A stretch of 64,000 nucleotides of DNA from Pseudarthrobacter siccitolerans (GTDB taxonomy: Bacteria; Actinomycetota; Actinomycetes; Actinomycetales; Micrococcaceae), in NCBI RefSeq assembly GCF_001046895.1, contig NZ_CAQI01000027.1:62001-126000 (forward strand). The letters run 5' to 3'. Under the pieces are notes generated by a model that ran no database searches, was not told the origin of the DNA, and was given only the letters and a program-made list of their open reading frames with translations. The position numbers were made by a program, and so were the translations under genes. Shown here one piece after another: positions 6,386 through 59,095 of the stretch (its first letter is position 1; every line of letters begins with the position of its first letter).

Positions 6386-6637
6386 TTAGGTCGCGGTGTC
6401 ATAGGACGTGCCGGCTCTCGGGCGCTGCGGAAGGTCATCGATAAGCTCGTTGAGGGCCATGGCCATCAGGTCTCGTTCGGCTGGGGGCAACGGATAGAGG
6501 CCGTGCAGGTACGCGTCGACTTCGAAGAATTTGATGTTCCCTCCGATGCTGAAGTACTGCAACCACACGTCGTACGTGGTCAGTTCCGCATCGCGGGCTG
6601 CGTGCCAAGAGCTTCGTTGCTGGGTCTCTTGATCCAT
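6386..6637 (-). CDS. Hypothetical small acidic protein
   Basis: 83 residues, with normal high-GC codon use and a plausible globular composition (WLQYFSIGGN, then a Leu-rich helix ERDLMAMALNELIDDL). There is no signal peptide, no membrane segment and no recognised domain. It converges on nothing and diverges from the PAS-ANTAR gene about 310 bp away. The ribosome-binding site is weak, so the start is uncertain. Confidence 0.4.
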   Translation of the reverse strand: MDQETQQRSSWHAARDAELTTYDVWLQYFSIGGNIKFFEVDAYLHGLYPLPPAERDLMAMALNELIDDLPQRPRAGTSYDTAT

Positions 6638-50316: not shown

Positions 50317-51435
50317 ATGTTGAGTTCCAAAGCATCCCGTTCAGTGGCCACCCGCCTGTTCGCGGCAGGAGCGGTCCTGACGTTGGGAGCGGTCAGTCTT
50401 TCTGCCTGCGGCGGCAGTTCCAGTGGTCCCTCAGCCAGCGGAGGCTCCGCTGACGAGAAGGTGGGCGTCTCCCTGATCGTGAAGACCACCACCAACCCGT
50501 TCTTTGTTTCCATGCAGGAGGGTGCAAAGAAGGCCGCCGAAACTGACGGGGTTGACCTGAAGCTGGCTGCCGGCAAGGCCGACGGCGATGAGGAAACGCA
50601 GATCCAGGCGATCGAAAACGCCATCTCCAAGGGGGACAAGGGAATCCTGATTACGCCCAACGGCCCCTCCGTGGTTGACGCCCTGAAGAAGGCGAAGGAC
50701 GCAGGCCTGTTCGTCATCGCCCTGGACACTCCGCCGGACCCCGCCGATGCCGCCGACATCACGTTCGCGACCGACAACTTCGCCGCCGGCGAGCTGATCG
50801 GTAAGTGGACCGCCGCGCAGCTGGACGGCAAGAAGGCCACCATCGCCCTGCTGGACCTCTTCGACGACAAGGTGGTCTCGGTGGACTACAACCGTGACCA
50901 GGGCTTCCTTACCGGGATGGGCATCGACACGGCTGACAAGAAGAAGAACGGTGATGAGGCCAAGACCGGCAAGTACACCGGCGGCAAGGGCGGGGAGTAC
51001 GAAATCGTCGGCAGCCAGGCCTCCCAGGGCGCCGAGGACGGCGGACGCACGGCGATGGAAACCCTCCTCGCCAAGAACCCGAACGTCAACGTCGTCTACA
51101 CCATCAACGAACCCGCCGCTGCCGGCGCCTTCGAGGCACTGAAGTCCGCGGGCAAGGAGAAGGACGTACTCGTGGTTTCGGTCGACGGCGGCTGCACCGG
51201 CGTGAACAACGTCAAGTCCGGCGTTATCGGCGCCACCGCCCAGCAGTACCCGGTCAAGATGGCCGAACTTGGCGTGAAGGCCATCGTGGATCTGGCCAAG
51301 ACCGGTAACAAGCCTGCCAACTCGCCGGGCCTGGACTTCTACAACACCGGCGTCGAACTCGTCACTGACAAGCCGGCCGACGGCATCAAGAGCATCACCA
51401 CCACCGAAGCTTCCGAGATCTGCTGGGGTAAGTAG
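50317..51435 (+). CDS. Sugar ABC transporter substrate-binding lipoprotein (ribose/fructose class)
   Basis: 372 residues. The signal peptide ends in the lipobox LGAVSLSAC. The body is a type I periplasmic-binding protein of the RbsB/FrcB class: VGVSLIVKTTTNPFFVSMQEG, then GILITPNGPSVVDALKKA, VSVDGGCTGV and GVIGATAQQYPVKMAELG. Together with the next two genes it makes a CUT2 importer. Fructose is the probable substrate, given the GH32 enzyme upstream and the fructokinase downstream. Confidence 0.9.
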   Translation: MLSSKASRSVATRLFAAGAVLTLGAVSLSACGGSSSGPSASGGSADEKVGVSLIVKTTTNPFFVSMQEGAKKAAETDGVDLKLAAGKADGDEETQIQAIENAISKGDKGILITPNGPSVVDALKKAKDAGLFVIALDTPPDPADAADITFATDNFAAGELIGKWTAAQLDGKKATIALLDLFDDKVVSVDYNRDQGFLTGMGIDTADKKKNGDEAKTGKYTGGKGGEYEIVGSQASQGAEDGGRTAMETLLAKNPNVNVVYTINEPAAAGAFEALKSAGKEKDVLVVSVDGGCTGVNNVKSGVIGATAQQYPVKMAELGVKAIVDLAKTGNKPANSPGLDFYNTGVELVTDKPADGIKSITTTEASEICWGK

Positions 51436-51545
51436 AACCCCACAGCCATGCGCCCGGGGAGGCCTCGCACCGCGCGGCCTCCCCGGAGCACCACTTCCGC
51501 GTTCGCTACGCGCCAGCAAACCATCATCGAAGATCAGGACCTATC

Positions 51546-52592
51546 GTGACCCAGCAACAGACCGCCGGCCCGCCCAGCGCCGGGCATGCAGACCTGGCGG
51601 AGGAATTCCTTGACCGCCAAACCCCGCTCAGCCGGATACGCAACATCCTCCACCGCTACCCAGCCCTCAGTCCGGCCCTCGTACTCCTCATCGCGGTGGT
51701 TGTGTTCGGCCTGCTCAATGACAGGTTCCTGCGGGTTGAAAACCTTTCGCTGATTACCCAGCAGGTTTCCGTCGTCGGCACCCTGGCCATCGCCCAGACA
51801 CTCATCATCCTCACGGCCGGGATTGACCTCTCCGTCGGAGCCGTGATGATCCTGTCCTCCATGGTGGTGGCCCAGCTCGCCGTCAACAACGGACTACCCG
51901 CGCCCGTTGCCCTGCTCGCAGGCCTGGTCGTGGGACTCGCCGCCGGAGCCGTGAACGGATTCCTGGTCACCAGGTTCCGGCTCCCTCCGTTCATCGTCAC
52001 CCTCGGCACCCTGAACATCTTCATCGCCCTGACGCTGCTTTACTCCAACGGAGCAACAGTGCGTGGCTCGGCAATGCCGGGCCTGCTGACCTGGACCGGA
52101 ACCACCTTCCCGGTGGGCGCCGTCAGGATCTCCACAGGCGTCGTCGTGATGCTCCTGCTCTACATCGCCATCGCCTTCATCCTCGGCAAGACAGCCTGGG
52201 GCCGGCACGTCTACGCCGTGGGCGATGACAAGGAAGCCGCCCGCCTGGCCGGCATCGCCGTGAACAAAGTCCTCATGAGCGTCTACCTGGCCGCCGGCGC
52301 CGTCCTGGCCATCGGTGCCTGGATCCAGATCGGCCGCACCAACGCAGCCAGCCCCAACGCCGGCGTGGACTTGAACCTCGACTCCATCACCGCCGTCGTC
52401 ATCGGCGGAACCAGCCTCTTCGGCGGCCGCGGCTCCGTCTGGGGAACACTCCTCGGCGCCCTGATCGTCGGCGTCTTCCGCAACGGACTCTCCCTCGCAG
52501 GCCTGGACGTTCTGTACCAGACCCTCGCGGTCGGCGTCCTGATCATCCTCGCTGTGTCCATCGACCAGTGGATCCGAAAGGTCAAGTCATGA
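51546..52592 (+). CDS. Sugar ABC transporter permease (CUT2, FrcC/RbsC type)
   Basis: 348 residues. A hydrophilic N-terminus of about 45 residues precedes eight to ten membrane helices. The CUT2 motifs GIDLSVGAVMILSSMVVA and AVGDDKEAARLAGI are present, as is the late GRGSVWGTLLGALIVGV. It forms the membrane channel of the fructose importer. It overlaps the ATPase start by 4 bp (ATGA). Confidence 0.9.
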   Translation: MTQQQTAGPPSAGHADLAEEFLDRQTPLSRIRNILHRYPALSPALVLLIAVVVFGLLNDRFLRVENLSLITQQVSVVGTLAIAQTLIILTAGIDLSVGAVMILSSMVVAQLAVNNGLPAPVALLAGLVVGLAAGAVNGFLVTRFRLPPFIVTLGTLNIFIALTLLYSNGATVRGSAMPGLLTWTGTTFPVGAVRISTGVVVMLLLYIAIAFILGKTAWGRHVYAVGDDKEAARLAGIAVNKVLMSVYLAAGAVLAIGAWIQIGRTNAASPNAGVDLNLDSITAVVIGGTSLFGGRGSVWGTLLGALIVGVFRNGLSLAGLDVLYQTLAVGVLIILAVSIDQWIRKVKS

Positions 52593-53383
52593 CCATGACA
52601 GAAGCAGCAGCATCCCACACCGCCACCCGCGAGCCCATCCTGTCAGCCAGGAACCTCGTCAAGACCTTCGGCCGCGTTGTTGGCCTGGACGGCGTCAGCC
52701 TCGACCTCTACCCGGGCGAAGTCCTGGCAGTCATCGGCGACAACGGCGCCGGCAAATCAACCCTGATCAAATGCCTCACCGGAGCAGAAGTCCCGGATTC
52801 CGGCGAACTCTTCGTCTCAGGACAGCCGGTACATTTCAAGCGGCCCCAGGACGCCCGGGCCCACGGAATCGAAACCGTGTACCAGAATCTTGCAGTGTCG
52901 CCGGCACTCGATGTCGCATCGAACCTGTTCCTCGGGCGGGAAGAGCGGGTCCCCGGCCCGCTGGGCAAGCTCTTCCGCGTCCTGGACACAAAGGGAATGC
53001 GCCGCAAAGCCAAGGATGAGCTCACCCGGCTCGGCATCTCCACCCTCCAGGACGTCACCGTCCCGGTCGAGAACCTCTCCGGCGGCCAGCGCCAGGCCGT
53101 TGCCGTGGCCCGTGCCGCGGCGTTCGGTTCCAAGGTTGTTGTGCTGGATGAGCCGACGGCGGCGCTGGGCGTGCGCGAATCCAACCAGGTCCTGCAGCTG
53201 GTCCGGGACCTCCGGGACCGCGGCCTGCCCGTCATCCTGATCAGCCACAACATGCCCCACGTGTTCGACGTGGCGGACCGGATCCACATCCAGCGCCTCG
53301 GCAAATGCGCGGCCACCATCACCCCGCAGTCCCACAATATGACCGATGCAGTGGCAATCATGACCGGCGCGGCCACCGCCTGA
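52589..53383 (+). CDS. Sugar ABC transporter ATP-binding protein (FrcA type)
   Basis: 264 residues from the ATG overlapping the permease stop. It is a single ATPase domain, as in FrcA rather than the double RbsA. Walker A: GDNGAGKST. Signature: LSGGQRQAVAVARA. Walker B: VVVLDEPTAALG. The H-loop is LISHNMPHVFDVADR. It energises fructose uptake. A perfect 16-bp hairpin follows before the kinase gene. Confidence 0.9.
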   Translation: MTMTEAAASHTATREPILSARNLVKTFGRVVGLDGVSLDLYPGEVLAVIGDNGAGKSTLIKCLTGAEVPDSGELFVSGQPVHFKRPQDARAHGIETVYQNLAVSPALDVASNLFLGREERVPGPLGKLFRVLDTKGMRRKAKDELTRLGISTLQDVTVPVENLSGGQRQAVAVARAAAFGSKVVVLDEPTAALGVRESNQVLQLVRDLRDRGLPVILISHNMPHVFDVADRIHIQRLGKCAATITPQSHNMTDAVAIMTGAATA

Positions 53384-53400
53384 TCAGCTGCTTGCCCCGA

Positions 53401-53440
53401 CGTCAGTCCGCGGACCAGGTCACCGGTCCGCGGACTGACG
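53401..53440. terminator. 16-bp perfect hairpin between importer and fructokinase
   Basis: CGTCAGTCCGCGGACC (53401-53416) pairs exactly with 53425-53440 across an 8-base loop. It probably lowers read-through into, or stabilises mRNA before, the kinase gene, which lies 46 bp further on. Confidence 0.65.
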
Positions 53441-53486
53441 CCGCTTGAACAGCCCCACCCCATCAGCTCCCCACGAGAGACAGACC

Positions 53487-54446
53487 ATGGATTACCTCAC
53501 AACAGCCCGGCAGGACACTCACCCGACACTTGACGTCACTGTCGTAGGCGAAGCGCTGATCGACGTGGTCACAACCTCAAATGGCCAGGTGGAACACCCG
53601 GGCGGCTCGCCGGCCAACGTCGCTTACGGACTCGGCCGCCTCGGCGTCAGCACAGGTCTGCTCACGGCCATCGCCCCCGACGCCCGGGGGACCGCCATCG
53701 AAAACCATCTCCTCAGCGCAGGAGTCACACTCCTGCCCGGCTCAAAATCCCTCACCCGGACACCGTCGGCAACAGCAACCCTCGCGGAGGACGGCTCGGC
53801 CACGTACGAGTTCGATATCTCCTGGGACCTGGCCCCCACGCCGCCGGCGTACTTCCCCAAAATCCTGCACACGGGATCCATCGCCACCTTCCTCAGCCCA
53901 GGCGCCAGCGCCGTAAAGGCCCTGCTCGAACAGGCCCACCGGCACTGCATGATCACCTACGACCCCAACATCCGGCCGGCCCTCCTCGGCAGCCACACGG
54001 AAGCGAAAGCGATCTTCGAAGAGCTCGCGGCCCTCACCGACGTGGTCAAACTCAGCGACGAGGACGCCCGGTGGCTGTACCCCCGGAAAAGCCTGGACGA
54101 AACCGCAGCGCACATCCTCGGACTGGGCACCCGGTTGACCGTCATTACGAAGGGCGCTGATGGTTCGCAATTCACCACAACCGCCGCCACCATCAGCATC
54201 CCCGCCGTGAAAACGACGGTTGCAGACACCATCGGCGCCGGCGACTCCTACATGTCCGCCCTGATCCTGGGCTTCCTCACCCGGGGAACCGAAGGCTTCG
54301 CCCCGGCGGTCCTGGAGCAGCTCGGACACACCGCAGCTGCCGCCGCGGCCATCACCGTCCAGCGCCCGGGAGCCAACCCACCGACCCTTGAGGAACTGAA
54401 CGCCGCACTCGAAGCCAACGCTCCGGCTCAGTACGCGGGGGCCTGA
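53487..54446 (+). CDS. PfkB-family fructokinase
   Basis: 319 residues from the ATG at 53487 (CGAGAGACAGACC upstream). Motifs: VVGEALIDVV, HPGGSPANVAYGLGRLG, and VADTIGAGDSYMSAL with the catalytic Asp. Phosphorylates the fructose brought in by the preceding importer, giving fructose-6-phosphate. It shares layout and many residues with the kinase at 2230-3234. It is the last gene of the levan/fructose locus. Confidence 0.9.
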   Translation: MDYLTTARQDTHPTLDVTVVGEALIDVVTTSNGQVEHPGGSPANVAYGLGRLGVSTGLLTAIAPDARGTAIENHLLSAGVTLLPGSKSLTRTPSATATLAEDGSATYEFDISWDLAPTPPAYFPKILHTGSIATFLSPGASAVKALLEQAHRHCMITYDPNIRPALLGSHTEAKAIFEELAALTDVVKLSDEDARWLYPRKSLDETAAHILGLGTRLTVITKGADGSQFTTTAATISIPAVKTTVADTIGAGDSYMSALILGFLTRGTEGFAPAVLEQLGHTAAAAAAITVQRPGANPPTLEELNAALEANAPAQYAGA

Positions 54447-54494: not shown

Positions 54495-57338
54495 TCAGGC
54501 CTTGAGTTGTAGCGGATCCTTCGCCTGGGCGGGCTGGGCTTTCCCGGCCTGCCCGCCCGCGCTGGAGACCGGCTTCACCCGCCGGAGGGCCGCGAGGATG
54601 GCACGGCCCACAACGGCAATACCGGTGATGGTGGTGATGGCGCGCAGGGTGTCCCAGCCCGCCGTCGACGTCACCAGCGAGTACAGCAGGAAGCTGCTGA
54701 GGTTGGTGCCCAACGGCGCCCCCGGCATGTAGGAGATGCCGGTGCCGGCGCCCACCGCGAAGGGCCAGAACCACAGGTTGGTCAGCAGGCCGAACAGGTA
54801 GGACGCCACCACGCCGTAGCCGGCCAGCATCCACAGTTCGGCCTTGCCCCGCACCCGGCGGGGGAGCAGGCCGGCGCCCGCGCCCACCCATGCGCAGGCG
54901 AAGATCTGGAACGGTGTCCACGGCCCGATGCCGCCCCACAAAGCACTCGAGACCGCGATGGTGGCGGCGCCGAGGAGCAGGCCGAAGCGGGCACCGAATG
55001 CCCGTCCGGCCAGGATCAGCAGGATAAAAACCGCCTCCACGCCCCCGACACCGGTACTCGCCACCCGCACCGCGGAACCCACCGCGGCCAGGACGCCGAG
55101 CAGCGCCACCGTGTGTGCCGAGCGGACGGATCCGTCGAGGGACACCACGATGGCCACGACGGCGATGGGCGCCATGGCCAAGGCCGCGTAGGGGAGTGCC
55201 GCGGCGGCATCCTGTGGAAGCGCGGCGGCGAGCAGCGGCCAGCAGAACGCGCCGAGAGCCAGGAGGTTAGCTGCGGCCAGGACGGCCAGCTCAACGGGCC
55301 GCGGCATCCGGAGGCGGGGCTTCTTCGCGCCAAAAGAGTCAGCTGGTCCGTCGCTGAACTTTGGTGCTGGGATCCGTGGGGTTGTTGCGGGTTGCGCGGA
55401 GAAGGCATCAGCCGGGGCGGCTTCCGTCTCGGAAGAAGGCGCGACGCCGTCACTCATCGGGAGGATCCGCGCACCAAGGCCGGGGGCAAAGTTTAGGTCA
55501 TGAGTGGCGATCAGGACGGCAGTGCCGGCGTCCGCTGCGGCCCGGAGTGCTGCCGAGACTGCTGTGCGTGCGGCCGGGTCGAGTCCGCGGGTGGGCTCAT
55601 CGATCAGGAGCACCTGCGGATCGTCCATGGTCTGCAGGGCGATGGCAAGGATCCTGCGCTCTCCTGCGGAAAGGTCGCGGGGATGCTCGTGCCCGATGGG
55701 AATGGCGTCTCCGCGGAGCCGGGCCAGATGCGAAGCTGCTGTGCCGGGCGCGGGCTGGATGCCGCCTTTTCGCCTGGCCTGGCGCCGCTCGGCGGCGCGA
55801 AGCTCTCCCGCGACAGTATCCCTGGTGAAGAGGTCGTCTGAGGTGTCCGGCACCAGGGCGACCCGACCGCCATCGGCCGTGCCGCCGTCGTACGTAGTTG
55901 ATCCGCCCGTACTTTCACCGAGAGCGAGCGCCACGAGAAGGGAGGACTTCCCAGCCCCGTTCGGCCCTACCAGGGCTACCACTTCACCGCGGTGCAGGGT
56001 CAGGGACGCGTCGCGCACCAGCGGTTTGCCCTTTCGGTGCACCGCGAGGTTGGTCGCGGTCAGCACGGGCGGAACGTCTGCTGTCTCATCCGGCGATTCG
56101 CGCACCTCAACAGGGCGGGAAGGGGAGGGGGCAGCGCTGGGGACGAGGGCGCCGTCGCTGATGGTCCACCAGGAATCGGCAACAGGCACAAGTGCTTCCG
56201 CCCGGTGCTCGGCCACGATGACACAGACACCGGCGTCGCGGGCGAGGGCATGAAGTACCGAGATGACGCGTGCGCGGGCTGCAGTATCAAGGTCGGCCAG
56301 GGGTTCATCCACCAGCAGCAGCGCCGGATAATCCACCACGGCGGCGGCGATGGCCACGAGGGTCGCCTCGCCCGCGGAGAGGGTGCTGAGGTTCCGGTCC
56401 AGCAGCGCCGTCACGCCAATCCGCTCGGCCACGTCCTGCACGCGGGCCTTCGTGGCAGCGGATGGCATGCCGCGCAGTTCAAGGGCGAGGGAGATTTCGT
56501 CCCGGACCCGGGTGCTGGCAAAGGCGGCGCGGGGGTTCTGCAGGACCACGCCGAGGTGGCGGGCGGTATCGCGCGGCGGAGTGGTGGCGCGGTTCGCCCC
56601 GGCGACGTGGACGGTGCCGGAAATGCCGCCGCCGTCGACGTGGGAGAGGAGACCGGCGATACCCCGGAGGATGGTGGACTTGCCGGAGCCGGTGGGTCCG
56701 GTAATGACGGTGATGGAGCCCCTGGCGGGGGTGAAGCCGGCGACGTGGACGGCTGCGTCACCAATGCGGAACTGGGCGTCCCGGACGAGAAGCGGAGCTT
56801 CGAAACCGCTGTCAGGCTGCTGGGCCGCCCGGCTTCCGAAGCCGCGCAGTTCCAGGGCAGCGGCAACCCTGCTGGCGTGTTCCAGGGTGCGCTCGAGTAC
56901 GGGCACCAGGGCGCGGGGGCCGAAGCGCTCGCCCCGTAAACGGAACGCCAGGCGTACGGAGGTGACGGCGTCGGCCAGGGCTGGGAGTGCGGCCCAGGCC
57001 ACCACAAGCATCCGGGCTATGCCCTGCATGGGGCCGCGGCGGGCCAGGAACACGAAGCCGCGGGCCACGTCCACCCAGGCGTTGAGCAGGCCGAAGCCGA
57101 CGAACAGTCCGGCAATGGGAAGGGCGGACAGGACCGCCGCCCACAACCCGGGCCCGGAGACCGGACCGAGGAAGACTACATGGGCGTACGGGGCCGGCAG
57201 CCGCATGGCCGGCAGGTCGAGCAGGATGGGCGAGCCAAGGCCCGCGCCATTGAAGAGAACGCGGTAGATGACCCGCGCCGCGATGAACACGACGGCCAGA
57301 GCAATGCCGGCGCGCAGCGGCGCGGGTCGGAAGGTCAT
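54495..57338 (-). CDS. One-polypeptide ECF transporter: T component, two ATPases and S component fused
   Basis: 947 residues from the ATG at 57338, which overlaps the previous stop by 4 bp. Residues 1-180 are a CbiQ/EcfT-like membrane domain ending in the coupling helix ALELRGFGSR. ATPase 1 has Walker A GPTGSGKST (214-222), LSAGE (320-324) and LLVDEP (341-346). ATPase 2 has GPNGAGKSS (458-466), DLSAGERRIL (about 555) and LLIDEP (577-582). Residues 680-930 are a six-helix ECF S-type domain. All four modules normally sit on three or four separate proteins. It is made with the DUF4430 lipoprotein, so a vitamin-like ligand, perhaps a corrinoid, is plausible but unproven. Confidence 0.85.
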   Translation of the reverse strand: MTFRPAPLRAGIALAVVFIAARVIYRVLFNGAGLGSPILLDLPAMRLPAPYAHVVFLGPVSGPGLWAAVLSALPIAGLFVGFGLLNAWVDVARGFVFLARRGPMQGIARMLVVAWAALPALADAVTSVRLAFRLRGERFGPRALVPVLERTLEHASRVAAALELRGFGSRAAQQPDSGFEAPLLVRDAQFRIGDAAVHVAGFTPARGSITVITGPTGSGKSTILRGIAGLLSHVDGGGISGTVHVAGANRATTPPRDTARHLGVVLQNPRAAFASTRVRDEISLALELRGMPSAATKARVQDVAERIGVTALLDRNLSTLSAGEATLVAIAAAVVDYPALLLVDEPLADLDTAARARVISVLHALARDAGVCVIVAEHRAEALVPVADSWWTISDGALVPSAAPSPSRPVEVRESPDETADVPPVLTATNLAVHRKGKPLVRDASLTLHRGEVVALVGPNGAGKSSLLVALALGESTGGSTTYDGGTADGGRVALVPDTSDDLFTRDTVAGELRAAERRQARRKGGIQPAPGTAASHLARLRGDAIPIGHEHPRDLSAGERRILAIALQTMDDPQVLLIDEPTRGLDPAARTAVSAALRAAADAGTAVLIATHDLNFAPGLGARILPMSDGVAPSSETEAAPADAFSAQPATTPRIPAPKFSDGPADSFGAKKPRLRMPRPVELAVLAAANLLALGAFCWPLLAAALPQDAAAALPYAALAMAPIAVVAIVVSLDGSVRSAHTVALLGVLAAVGSAVRVASTGVGGVEAVFILLILAGRAFGARFGLLLGAATIAVSSALWGGIGPWTPFQIFACAWVGAGAGLLPRRVRGKAELWMLAGYGVVASYLFGLLTNLWFWPFAVGAGTGISYMPGAPLGTNLSSFLLYSLVTSTAGWDTLRAITTITGIAVVGRAILAALRRVKPVSSAGGQAGKAQPAQAKDPLQLKA

Positions 57339-57886
57339 GCCTTGGGGGCGGCCGGTTCGCCGTCGACGGTGTAGAGCAGTTCCAGGCTCTCTCCGGGGCT
57401 TACCTTCAAGGTGGCGACGCCTTCCTGGGCGTAGCCCCACTCACCGGAGGCCGGCTTGACCCACAGCGACCAGTAGGCGAAGGCAGCGGACATGTCCTTG
57501 CATTCCTCGCGGTAGGTGCCGCCCTTGTGCTTGATGTCGAAGTCGGCGGCGGGGACGCCGTTCACGCGGCACACCGCGTCGGGGTACTTCGTGCTGCCCT
57601 CGGTCTTGATGTCGGCCTCTTCGAGAACCGTGGAAGCTACGGTTGGTCCGTCCACGGGCACGCATACGGACTTGTCGGCGGCGGCCTGCTTTAGCGAACC
57701 GGAATCGACGATTACTTTCACGCCGGTGCAGGGACCGTCGGAGGCGCTGGGGGAGGAGGCTGCCGAGGAAGCCGGGTCGGAGGCAGCAGGCTGGGTGGCC
57801 GGCGCGGAGCAGGCGGCGAGGGAAAACAGGAGACCGGCGGCGGCGAGGGAGCTCGCGGCGGCGGTACGCATCTTAGTCAAAGTCAC
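57335..57886 (-). CDS. DUF4430 (transcobalamin C-terminal-like) lipoprotein
   Basis: 183 residues from a GTG; an ATG five codons later is possible. The signal peptide ends in lipobox LFSLAAC, then comes a Ser/Ala-rich linker and one DUF4430 domain (VKVIVDSGSL, then CRVNGVPAADFDI, FAYWSLWVKPASGEWGYAQEG). That domain is related to the C-terminal β-domain of transcobalamin/intrinsic factor. It is translationally coupled to the ECF fusion and is probably its surface ligand-binding partner. No cobalamin riboswitch is visible in the 90 bp upstream. Confidence 0.8.
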   Translation of the reverse strand: MTLTKMRTAAASSLAAAGLLFSLAACSAPATQPAASDPASSAASSPSASDGPCTGVKVIVDSGSLKQAAADKSVCVPVDGPTVASTVLEEADIKTEGSTKYPDAVCRVNGVPAADFDIKHKGGTYREECKDMSAAFAYWSLWVKPASGEWGYAQEGVATLKVSPGESLELLYTVDGEPAAPKA

Positions 57887-57975
57887 TTGTCAAGGGTAGG
57901 ACGTTGCCTGGTCGAATCCGGATGCGATCGCGTTGTGTGACGTTAGTTCTCAAGCCGGATGAAGCGGGCCCTTTA

Positions 57976-58446
57976 TTACAGGGACAACTCCATAAAAACG
58001 CTGTTGGGATCCAGGGTGTAGCCGGCGAACGGCGGGCACTCGGTGAAGCCGTTCCGGGCGTACAGCCGCCTGGCAGGGGCGAAGTACTCCTCGGTTCCGG
58101 TCTCGAGGTAGACGCGCCTGAGTTCCCGGGCGCGGGCATCGTCGAGGATGTGCCGGAGCATCAGGGTGGCTACGCCCCGGCCGCGTGCGCCCGCTGTGGT
58201 GCGCATGGACTTGATCTCGCCAGCCAGCGCCCCGATTGGGGGATCCAGGAGCTTGAGTGCGCCGCACCCCAGCAGGCCGCCGTCCTCGCGGGCCGTCCAG
58301 AAGGTGATCGATGGCCCGGATAAGGCGGAGTGGTCCAGGGCATGGACGCTTTCGGCCGGGGAGGTGGCGTACATGTCCGCCAGGTGTTCGCTGAGGAGCT
58401 GACGGACGTCGGCCCGTGCGGGGTCGTCCCGGTTAATGGAAATCAT
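57976..58446 (-). CDS. GNAT-family N-acetyltransferase
   Basis: 156 residues. It has the GNAT fold with the acetyl-CoA pyrophosphate loop in GEIKSMRTTAGARGRGVATLML (the R-G-x-G/A motif) and the final strand YLETGTEEYFAPARRLYARNGF. Relatives acetylate amines or arginine-like substrates; the substrate is unknown. It is transcribed towards the ECF operon with an 89-bp gap. Confidence 0.88.
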   Translation of the reverse strand: MISINRDDPARADVRQLLSEHLADMYATSPAESVHALDHSALSGPSITFWTAREDGGLLGCGALKLLDPPIGALAGEIKSMRTTAGARGRGVATLMLRHILDDARARELRRVYLETGTEEYFAPARRLYARNGFTECPPFAGYTLDPNSVFMELSL

Positions 58447-58621
58447 CGGCTCAAATCTACCGGCTGACACTGCGGAATCCTCAAGCCGGGCGGGGGAATT
58501 CCGAGGGGCTGGACCCCGGCAGCGGCCGGATTTATGGTGAAAAGGTGGCGGCTGCCTGACTGGCAGGAGAGCCAGTGCTGCCGGTCCGCTGTTGCGGCCG
58601 TCCGTCACGAGGAGGAAGCAG

Positions 58622-59095
58622 ATGGAACACGTTGAAGAGACAGTTGACGTCGCAGTTCCGGTGCGGACCGCGTACAACCAGTGGACCCAGTTCGAGTCCT
58701 TTCCGCAGTTTATGTCCGGAGTGGAGTCCGTGACCCAGCTGACCGACACCACCAACCACTGGGTCACCAAGGTGGGTGGTGTCCGGCGGGAATTCGATAC
58801 CGAAATAGTCGACCAGGAACCGGACGACCGGATCGCCTGGCGCAGCACCGACGGCAAGTCCCACGCCGGAATCATCAGGTTCACGCCGCTGGATCCCAAC
58901 CACACGAAGGTCAAAGTCCATTTCGAATGGGCGCCGGAAACCCTGACTGAAAAGGCAGGCGCGGCGCTGAAGATCGACGAGATGCAGGTAAAGGCCGATA
59001 TGCGGAAGTTCAAGGCCTTCATCGAATCGCGCGGCACCGAAACCGGCGGCTGGCGCGGAGAAGTCCAGGACAGCGGCCCCACCGGGCAGTTCTAG
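58622..59095 (+). CDS. SRPBCC-family (polyketide cyclase/START-like) protein
   Basis: 157 residues from the ATG at 58622, which has a strong CGAGGAGGAAGC site. The START/Bet v1-like fold is readable: VDVAVPVRTAYNQWTQFESF, then FMSGVESVTQL, IAWRSTDGKSHAGIIRFTPL and TKVKVHFEW. Such stand-alone proteins bind hydrophobic ligands; the function is unknown. It is monocistronic, followed by a strong terminator, and diverges from the GNAT gene. Confidence 0.85.
   Translation: MEHVEETVDVAVPVRTAYNQWTQFESFPQFMSGVESVTQLTDTTNHWVTKVGGVRREFDTEIVDQEPDDRIAWRSTDGKSHAGIIRFTPLDPNHTKVKVHFEWAPETLTEKAGAALKIDEMQVKADMRKFKAFIESRGTETGGWRGEVQDSGPTGQF

What the first reader, a model, noticed from the sequence alone, without database searches (positions are those of the whole stretch)
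54495..57886. All-in-one ECF transporter (T-A-A-S) coupled to a DUF4430 lipoprotein
One 947-residue chain holds an EcfT-like domain, two complete ATPases and an S-like six-helix domain. ECF systems normally split these. The preceding lipoprotein carries the transcobalamin C-terminal-like domain and overlaps it by 4 bp. A dedicated actinobacterial extracytoplasmic binding protein feeding a fused ECF machine would be unusual, since ECF importers classically lack such proteins.
Basis: partly seen in the sequence, partly recalled or inferred. Interest (0 to 1): 0.7.

Follow-up and report, generated by a model that had tools for sequence, protein, structure and literature searches.

The report
One-chain vitamin B12 importer with lipoprotein
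A soil bacterium appears to build its vitamin B12 importer as one long protein instead of three or four, and to feed it with a small surface protein shaped like part of the human blood carrier of B12; this could show whether such importers need to come apart to work.

Summary
Window 54495-57338 (-) encodes 947 residues in the order T-A-A-S. A 183-residue lipoprotein gene (57335-57886, -) precedes it, overlapping by ATGA. In 54 of 54 Arthrobacter/Pseudarthrobacter loci the lipoprotein lies upstream, and 52 of 54 keep the fusion in one frame. T matches EcfT by family profile (E 4e-13). S has no Pfam hit alone, but 29 of 43 family members match ECF_trnsprt. The lipoprotein misses Pfam DUF4430, yet its predicted fold is the beta-domain of transcobalamin and intrinsic factor (Z 10-10.8; next fold 6.1).
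Context points to cobalamin: in a sample of the order, 68 of 70 genomes with the S family have a B12-binding enzyme against 28 of 178 without, and 58 of 70 lack CbiC. Methionine synthase MetH sits near many fused relatives; cobalamin riboswitches precede some unfused ones. T-A-A fused once on the tree; S joined or left at least twice. The fused T has lost membrane segments.
Verdict: new variant of ECF B12 importers. Operons pairing such proteins with CbiO/CbiQ were predicted in 2007; the one-chain machine and its actinobacterial spread were not found in ten literature searches. Transport is untested.

The parts
57335..57886 (-). lipoprotein gene, 183 aa, transcobalamin beta-domain-like
   Evidence: upstream in 54 of 54 relatives
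57809..57886 (-). signal peptide and lipobox LAAC (residues 1-26)
   Evidence: read from the translation; aligned in A2
57338..57736 (-). modelled beta-domain of the lipoprotein (residues 51-183); Cys 75, 106, 129 and YW..W invariant in 21 aligned relatives
   Evidence: best model pLDDT 79.7; transcobalamin/intrinsic factor/haptocorrin rows Z 10.1-10.8; alignment A8
57335..57338 (-). ATGA overlap of the two genes
54495..57338 (-). T-A-A-S fusion gene, 947 aa
   Evidence: 52 of 54 relatives hold it in one frame
56814..57338 (-). T domain (residues 1-175): shortened EcfT core with xRG motifs at 132 and 162
   Evidence: profile A7 against EcfT E 4e-13; hydropathy; motifs
56124..56783 (-). first ABC ATPase (about residues 186-405)
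55419..56072 (-). second ABC ATPase (about residues 423-640)
55299..55418 (-). linker (about residues 641-680) between second ATPase and S
   Evidence: inferred from domain limits
54558..55298 (-). S component (about residues 681-927), six hydrophobic segments, ANLLA (AxxxA) in the first
   Evidence: family A6: 29 of 43 match PF12822

Best explanation
It is a dedicated (group I-like) ECF importer for cobalamin or close corrinoids. The lipoprotein, anchored outside the membrane, catches B12 with a transcobalamin-type beta-grasp domain and passes it to the S domain. The S domain carries it across by the toppling movement known for ECF transporters, driven by the two ATPase domains through the T domain's coupling helices. 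Because S is tied to the second ATPase by a short linker, and the T domain has lost much of its membrane part, S probably reorients in place and is not released. The imported B12 serves mainly methionine synthase MetH, in bacteria that mostly lack a marker of B12 synthesis. Shown here: gene order, domains, conservation, genomic link to B12, predicted lipoprotein fold. Inferred: substrate, handover, tethered cycle.
For: Domains. Lipoprotein fold: the first 15 rows are transcobalamin, intrinsic factor, haptocorrin and one bacterial protein (3u7z), Z 10.1-10.8, then 6.1; Foldseek ranks them first too, best E 3.3e-3. B12 link: 68 of 70 S-bearing genomes have a B12-binding domain over the Pfam cut-off against 28 of 178 others; in family f1, 4 of 4 against 1 of 15. 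CbiC in only 12 of those 70. MetH within the fetched flanks in 33 of 54 Arthrobacter/Pseudarthrobacter loci and 12 of 12 distant fused-clade loci. Cobalamin-clan riboswitch in 11 of 27 scanned unfused loci, in 8 of them on the same strand just before the first gene by my reading of coordinates (with 37, 83). Cobalamin adenosyltransferase in 5 of 28 unfused loci (named by Pfam in L142, E 1.8e-45). The T-A-A-fused clade is one side of a branch at 100/100.
Against: No riboswitch in the window or in 18 fused-clade loci scanned; the window genome's MetH lies about 91 kb away. MetH is near only 1 of 28 unfused loci (L144; plus a 32% match in L155). S-domain model failed. The weak match to 6fnp chain A (entry of ECF-CbrT; E 0.025) vanished with the wider profile. 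The five lipoprotein models disagree in confidence (pLDDT 79.7 to 41.8) and no Foldseek match reaches E 0.001. 28 genomes have B12 enzymes without this system and 2 (G182, G323) the reverse. The co-occurrence test ignores shared ancestry. I did not search the window genome for BtuCDF. No binding or transport data.
Confidence: 0.8

Rival explanations
1. The transporter imports B12 by itself and the lipoprotein is an accessory that is not needed for transport, for instance a surface store, a scavenger that raises local B12, or a partner of another protein.
For: CbrT imports B12 in liposomes without a soluble protein (PMC5997447, passages); the toroid domain that helps to bind B12 in transcobalamin is absent from the lipoprotein.
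Against: Lipoprotein gene overlaps the transporter gene and is upstream in 54 of 54 loci; a relative is upstream in 37 of 40 distant loci.
Confidence: 0.17
2. The system imports a corrinoid precursor such as cobinamide, or cobalt, and not cobalamin itself.
For: CbrT also takes cobinamide (PMC5997447, passages); the T part resembles CbiQ, a part of cobalt importers (below cut-off).
Against: 58 of 70 carrier genomes lack CbiC, so cobalt would be of little use for B12 synthesis; at E 0.01 the S family matches only two Pfam families, PF12822 and PF07155, neither a cobalt one.
Confidence: 0.1
3. The fusion is not a working transporter, or carries an unrelated substrate, and its link with MetH and riboswitches reflects shared ancestry of the genomes.
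For: The co-occurrence statistic is not corrected for phylogeny; no riboswitch in the fused clade.
Against: Two Walker A and two signature motifs in 48 of 54 sequences by my patterns; S domain mean column identity 82% (with its tail, 21 rows) and 94% (54 rows); presence and absence track B12 enzymes inside one genus, 4 of 4 and 0 of 4.
Confidence: 0.05

Closest known systems
ECF-CbrT of Lactobacillus delbrueckii (group II B12 importer, PDB 6FNP; PMC5997447)
   Same: ECF module plus S component for B12; there too pduO lies in the gene cluster
   Different: Separate subunits and a shared module in CbrT; here one chain with its own S; transport without a soluble binding protein in CbrT; no convincing sequence relation of the S parts
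SLBB/transcobalamin-like proteins in CbiO-CbiQ operons (Burroughs et al. 2007, PMC1796856)
   Same: Extracellular transcobalamin-type beta-grasp protein encoded with ECF parts; proposed role B12 scavenging
   Different: Reported for low-GC Gram-positives, planctomycetes and some euryarchaea; no actinobacterial branch and no fused T-A-A-S in the passages and section I read
YkoEDC thiamine importer (group I; PMC5037267, passages)
   Different: Three polypeptides; thiamine
Human transcobalamin / intrinsic factor
   Same: Beta-domain fold
   Different: The animal proteins carry an alpha/alpha toroid on the same chain; some unfused actinobacterial relatives encode secreted proteins with sub-threshold toroid-like matches
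BtuCDF
   Same: Binding-protein-dependent B12 ABC importer
   Different: Described as structurally and mechanistically unrelated to ECF-CbrT (PMC5997447, passages); not compared here by sequence

Membership tests
ECF transporter | two ABC ATPases with intact motifs | tested here: met
ECF transporter | EcfT-type T component with xRG coupling helices | tested here: met
   profile A7 against EcfT E 4e-13; FRLRG and LELRG; but shortened membrane part and CbiQ below its Pfam cut-off
ECF transporter | membrane-embedded S component (sequence family) | tested here: met
   by family: 29 of 43 members match PF12822, 13 of 43 PF07155, 11 of 43 an NCBIfam folate-family S model; the window's own row matches none
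ECF transporter | S-component fold | tested here: inconclusive
   AlphaFold2 model pLDDT 52, pTM 0.29; not searched
ECF transporter | ATP-driven micronutrient uptake | not testable with these tools
   needs an uptake assay
CbrT-type B12 S component | sequence relation to CbrT | tested here: inconclusive
   E 0.025 to 6fnp_A with the narrow profile, none with the wide one
Transcobalamin-like SLBB clade | beta-grasp fold with hairpin insert as in the transcobalamin C-terminal domain | tested here: met
   a predicted model from 55 close sequences
Pfam DUF4430 (PF14478) | score over the family cut-off | tested here: not met
   no match at E 10; none over cut-off in the genome; none at E 0.1 among 21 relatives
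Transcobalamin / intrinsic factor | alpha/alpha toroid domain on the same chain | tested here: not met
   183 aa with signal, linker and one beta-domain only
B12-riboswitch-regulated importer | cobalamin riboswitch before the operon | tested here: not met
   none in the window; present in 11 of 27 scanned unfused relatives

The most novel reading that the evidence does not exclude
A natural, covalently closed ECF transporter that never releases its S component, with an EcfT reduced to its coupling core, and that depends on a lipoprotein handing over B12: a hybrid between ECF transporters and binding-protein-dependent ABC importers.
Probability: 0.35. Interest if true: 0.78.

Novelty: new variant of a known kind. 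Interest (0 to 1): 0.6.

Why it matters
Whether the S component must leave the ECF module during transport is open: the single-molecule study of ECF-CbrT says its data do not formally show that expulsion is essential (PMC12075633, passages), and the expulsion paper supposes that group I S components may not separate far (PMC10368641, passages). A natural T-A-A-S chain makes this directly testable. It also offers a marker for corrinoid uptake in soil Actinobacteria; a soil corrinoid study could not predict uptake genes reliably because transporter annotations are limited (PMC11287211, passages). And it links a bacterial importer with the fold that animals use to carry B12.

Tried and rejected
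DUF4430 by Pfam: no match for the lipoprotein, for 10 distant frames or for 21 aligned relatives. Profiles of the lipoprotein against PDB sequences: no transcobalamin; best E 0.2 and 0.039 to a lipoprotein over its N-terminal part. S-domain model: too poor to search. CbrT kinship of S: a weak match that vanished. Riboswitch in the window: none, also with relaxed filters over 57300-58700. Not scanned for riboswitches: L162 and 48 of the 54 Arthrobacter/Pseudarthrobacter loci. Neighbouring GNAT gene (57976-58446, -) as part of the unit: in 10 of 54 loci, close to the lipoprotein gene in two (L036, L059). PfkB gene downstream: 2 of 54. Promoter scan: nothing; terminator-like sites no more than in shuffles. 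The fusion frame stops after 183 residues in L052 and 124 in L058; not followed. The ATGA position is reported for 52 of 54 loci; for those two the script had started elsewhere in the gene. The 54 loci come from a search with this very protein, so they say nothing about lipoproteins away from the fusion. The 40 distant loci were picked by me from the high-scoring rows from each. Profile A8 contains sequences from 18 of the 37 loci in which one search finds an upstream relative; 19 are independent of it, 16 of them below E 1e-6. MetH and PduO searches used one sequence each, from L135 and L142. Plasmid collection: 5 records match the S domain, one place annotated 'ECF transporter S component', the others without annotation under the match. 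Literature: ten searches, seen as listings, with passages of PMC1796856 (also section 7, part 1), PMC5997447, PMC11109136, PMC12075633, PMC7755397, PMC10368641, PMC2667541, PMC11287211, PMC3246461, PMC5037267 and PMC6828968 opened; none of what I saw describes a T-A-A-S fusion or this actinobacterial lipoprotein. Only open-licence PMC papers are held, and Rodionov et al. 2009, the founding survey, was not read.
Full report
WHAT IS THERE. On the minus strand a 183-residue lipoprotein gene (57335-57886) is followed, with an ATGA overlap, by a 947-residue gene (54495-57338). The long protein holds, in order, a T domain (about 1-175), two ABC ATPases (about 186-405 and 423-640) with all motifs, a linker, and a C-terminal membrane domain with six hydrophobic segments. 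An upstream GTG would give 981 residues but lies inside the lipoprotein gene, and 21 of 21 aligned relatives begin with MTFR.

CONSERVATION. One scan of genome contigs gave 65 loci; 55 are Arthrobacter or Pseudarthrobacter (L009-L062 and the contig-end fragment L063), and the other 10 match in the ATPase part. In 54 of 54 (L009-L062) the lipoprotein lies upstream; a start codon at the overlap position is seen in 52 of 54, and 52 of 54 hold the fusion in one frame. In a sample of 120 genomes of the family, 7 have the S domain, so the system is patchy.

WHAT THE DOMAINS ARE. T: Pfam CbiQ only below cut-off, but a profile of 42 sequences hits EcfT of solved ECF complexes at 4e-13. S: no Pfam family for the window's own sequence, but 29 of 43 members of its family match ECF_trnsprt and 13 match ECF-ribofla_trS, and 11 match an NCBIfam folate-family S model. 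The first helix carries ANLLA, the AxxxA pattern reported as the contact with EcfT (PMC11109136, passages); across the family that pair is A/G in 13, A/A in 11 and other residues in 19 of 43. The S domain's structure prediction failed. Lipoprotein: no DUF4430 match, but its best model (pLDDT 79.7; the five models range down to 41.8) matches transcobalamin, intrinsic factor and haptocorrin beta-domains at Z 10.1-10.8, rmsd 2.4-2.7 over 93-99 residues. One bacterial protein annotated 'putative metal binding' (3u7z, Z 10.3) stands among them, and the next row is at 6.1. Foldseek alone puts the same proteins first, without reaching E 0.001. The order of strands, helix and hairpin fits the transcobalamin-like SLBB description in PMC1796856.

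WIDER FAMILY. The S profile finds relatives in 70 of 248 genomes of the order and 77 of 296 of the phylum; some genomes are in both samples. Of 40 distant loci (20 picked from each list), 6 have T-A-A-S in one frame, 6 have T-A-A plus S, 27 have T, A-A and S apart, and one (L162) lacks T nearby. A transcobalamin-like frame lies upstream in 37 of 40 (18 of the 37 had given sequences to the profile, 19 are independent); not in L162, L166, L169. A tree of 43 S sequences puts all 15 T-A-A-fused rows on one side of a branch (100/100), and the split between joined and separate S needs at least two changes within it. In the fused forms T is only the core: in each of the five stand-alone T proteins examined one more hydrophobic segment comes before it and four after it, while the T of the window, L135 and L136 starts at the core and runs into the first ATPase. 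By alignment the family's shared core lacks about the first 60 and the last 30 residues of EcfT. That two membrane helices remain is my inference.

B12. (1) Co-occurrence: 68 of 70 genomes with the S family have a B12-binding domain over the Pfam cut-off, against 28 of 178 without it; Fisher p 2e-35, not corrected for ancestry (from 21 and 48; 17 genomes with best E of 9e-5 or weaker were not counted as having one, which leaves 96, the number over the cut-off). In the window's genus 4 of 4 carriers and 0 of 4 non-carriers have one; in its family 4 of 4 and 1 of 15. The two exceptions are G182, whose S frame holds a stop, and G323, a 67% complete genome. (2) CbiC, a marker of B12 synthesis, is present in 12 of the 70 and was not found in the window genome. 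(3) MetH lies within the fetched flanks in 33 of 54 Arthrobacter/Pseudarthrobacter loci and 12 of 12 distant fused-clade loci, mostly downstream on the opposite strand, but in 1 of 28 unfused loci (L144, plus a 32% match in L155). In the window genome it is on the same contig, about 91 kb away; the stop counted there is the gene's end. (4) Riboswitches of the cobalamin clan are in 11 of 27 scanned unfused loci. In 8 (L142, L145, L146, L147, L150, L154, L155, L158) one lies on the same strand just before the first gene; L147 is barely over threshold. In L152, L153 and L169 they lie before a neighbour or on the other strand. None in 12 distant fused-clade loci, 6 Arthrobacter loci or the window. 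(5) A cobalamin adenosyltransferase is in 5 of 28 unfused loci, all of one family, f13 (named by Pfam in L142). (6) Five frames in four unfused loci (L143, L150, L152, L154) give sub-threshold toroid-like matches; the toroid is the other half of the B12 site in transcobalamin (PMC1796856).

HOW IT PROBABLY WORKS. The lipoprotein catches B12 outside; S takes it over and topples on the coupling helices; ATP binding and hydrolysis reset it. In the described expulsion cycle S is pushed out and the EcfT membrane domain takes its place (PMC10368641, passages). Here S is tied by a linker of some 40 residues and much of that EcfT domain is missing, so release is unlikely. This is inference.

AGAINST AND OPEN. 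The S fold, the substrate and the handover are untested; the B12 case rests on relatives and statistics, since the window itself has neither riboswitch nor adjacent MetH. 28 genomes have B12 enzymes without the system (9 of these have CbiC), so other importers must exist; in 2009 over 90% of B12-uptaking organisms were reported to have BtuFCD homologs (PMC2667541, passages), and I did not look for those here.

KNOWN OR NEW. The pairing of such binding proteins with ECF parts was predicted in 2007 for other groups. A-A fusions are known (PMC6828968, passages; YkoD, PMC5037267, passages). The one-chain T-A-A-S machine with a reduced T, and its actinobacterial spread, were not found in ten literature searches over open-licence papers.

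Noticed in passing
L152:6900-7661: A cobalamin riboswitch is followed by a second small secreted protein with the GVTVVVDF motif, on the strand opposite to the T, A-A, S operon.
   Followed up: partly
L092 (G182:C1:3215789-3216544): S-family frame with one in-frame TGA in a genome without a B12-binding domain over the cut-off: possibly a decaying copy.
   Followed up: no
L052 near 6531-6546; L058 between 6309 and 6674: The fusion frame is interrupted at the end of, or inside, the T part in these two records, by assembly error or real decay.
   Followed up: no
L154:1108-3381: Secreted 758-aa protein with a weak toroid match and three CW_binding_2 stretches (E 4e-31) right behind a cobalamin riboswitch: possibly a wall-bound B12 carrier.
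   Followed up: partly
L142:4667-7744, L145, L146: Frames that by recalled motifs look like 5-oxoprolinase (PxpABC) genes, and in L142 and L146 an unknown lipoprotein, lie downstream of S.
   Followed up: no
50317-54446: On the plus strand, a sugar-type ABC importer (binding lipoprotein, permease, ATPase) and a PfkB-like kinase, converging on the fusion; names by recall.
   Followed up: no
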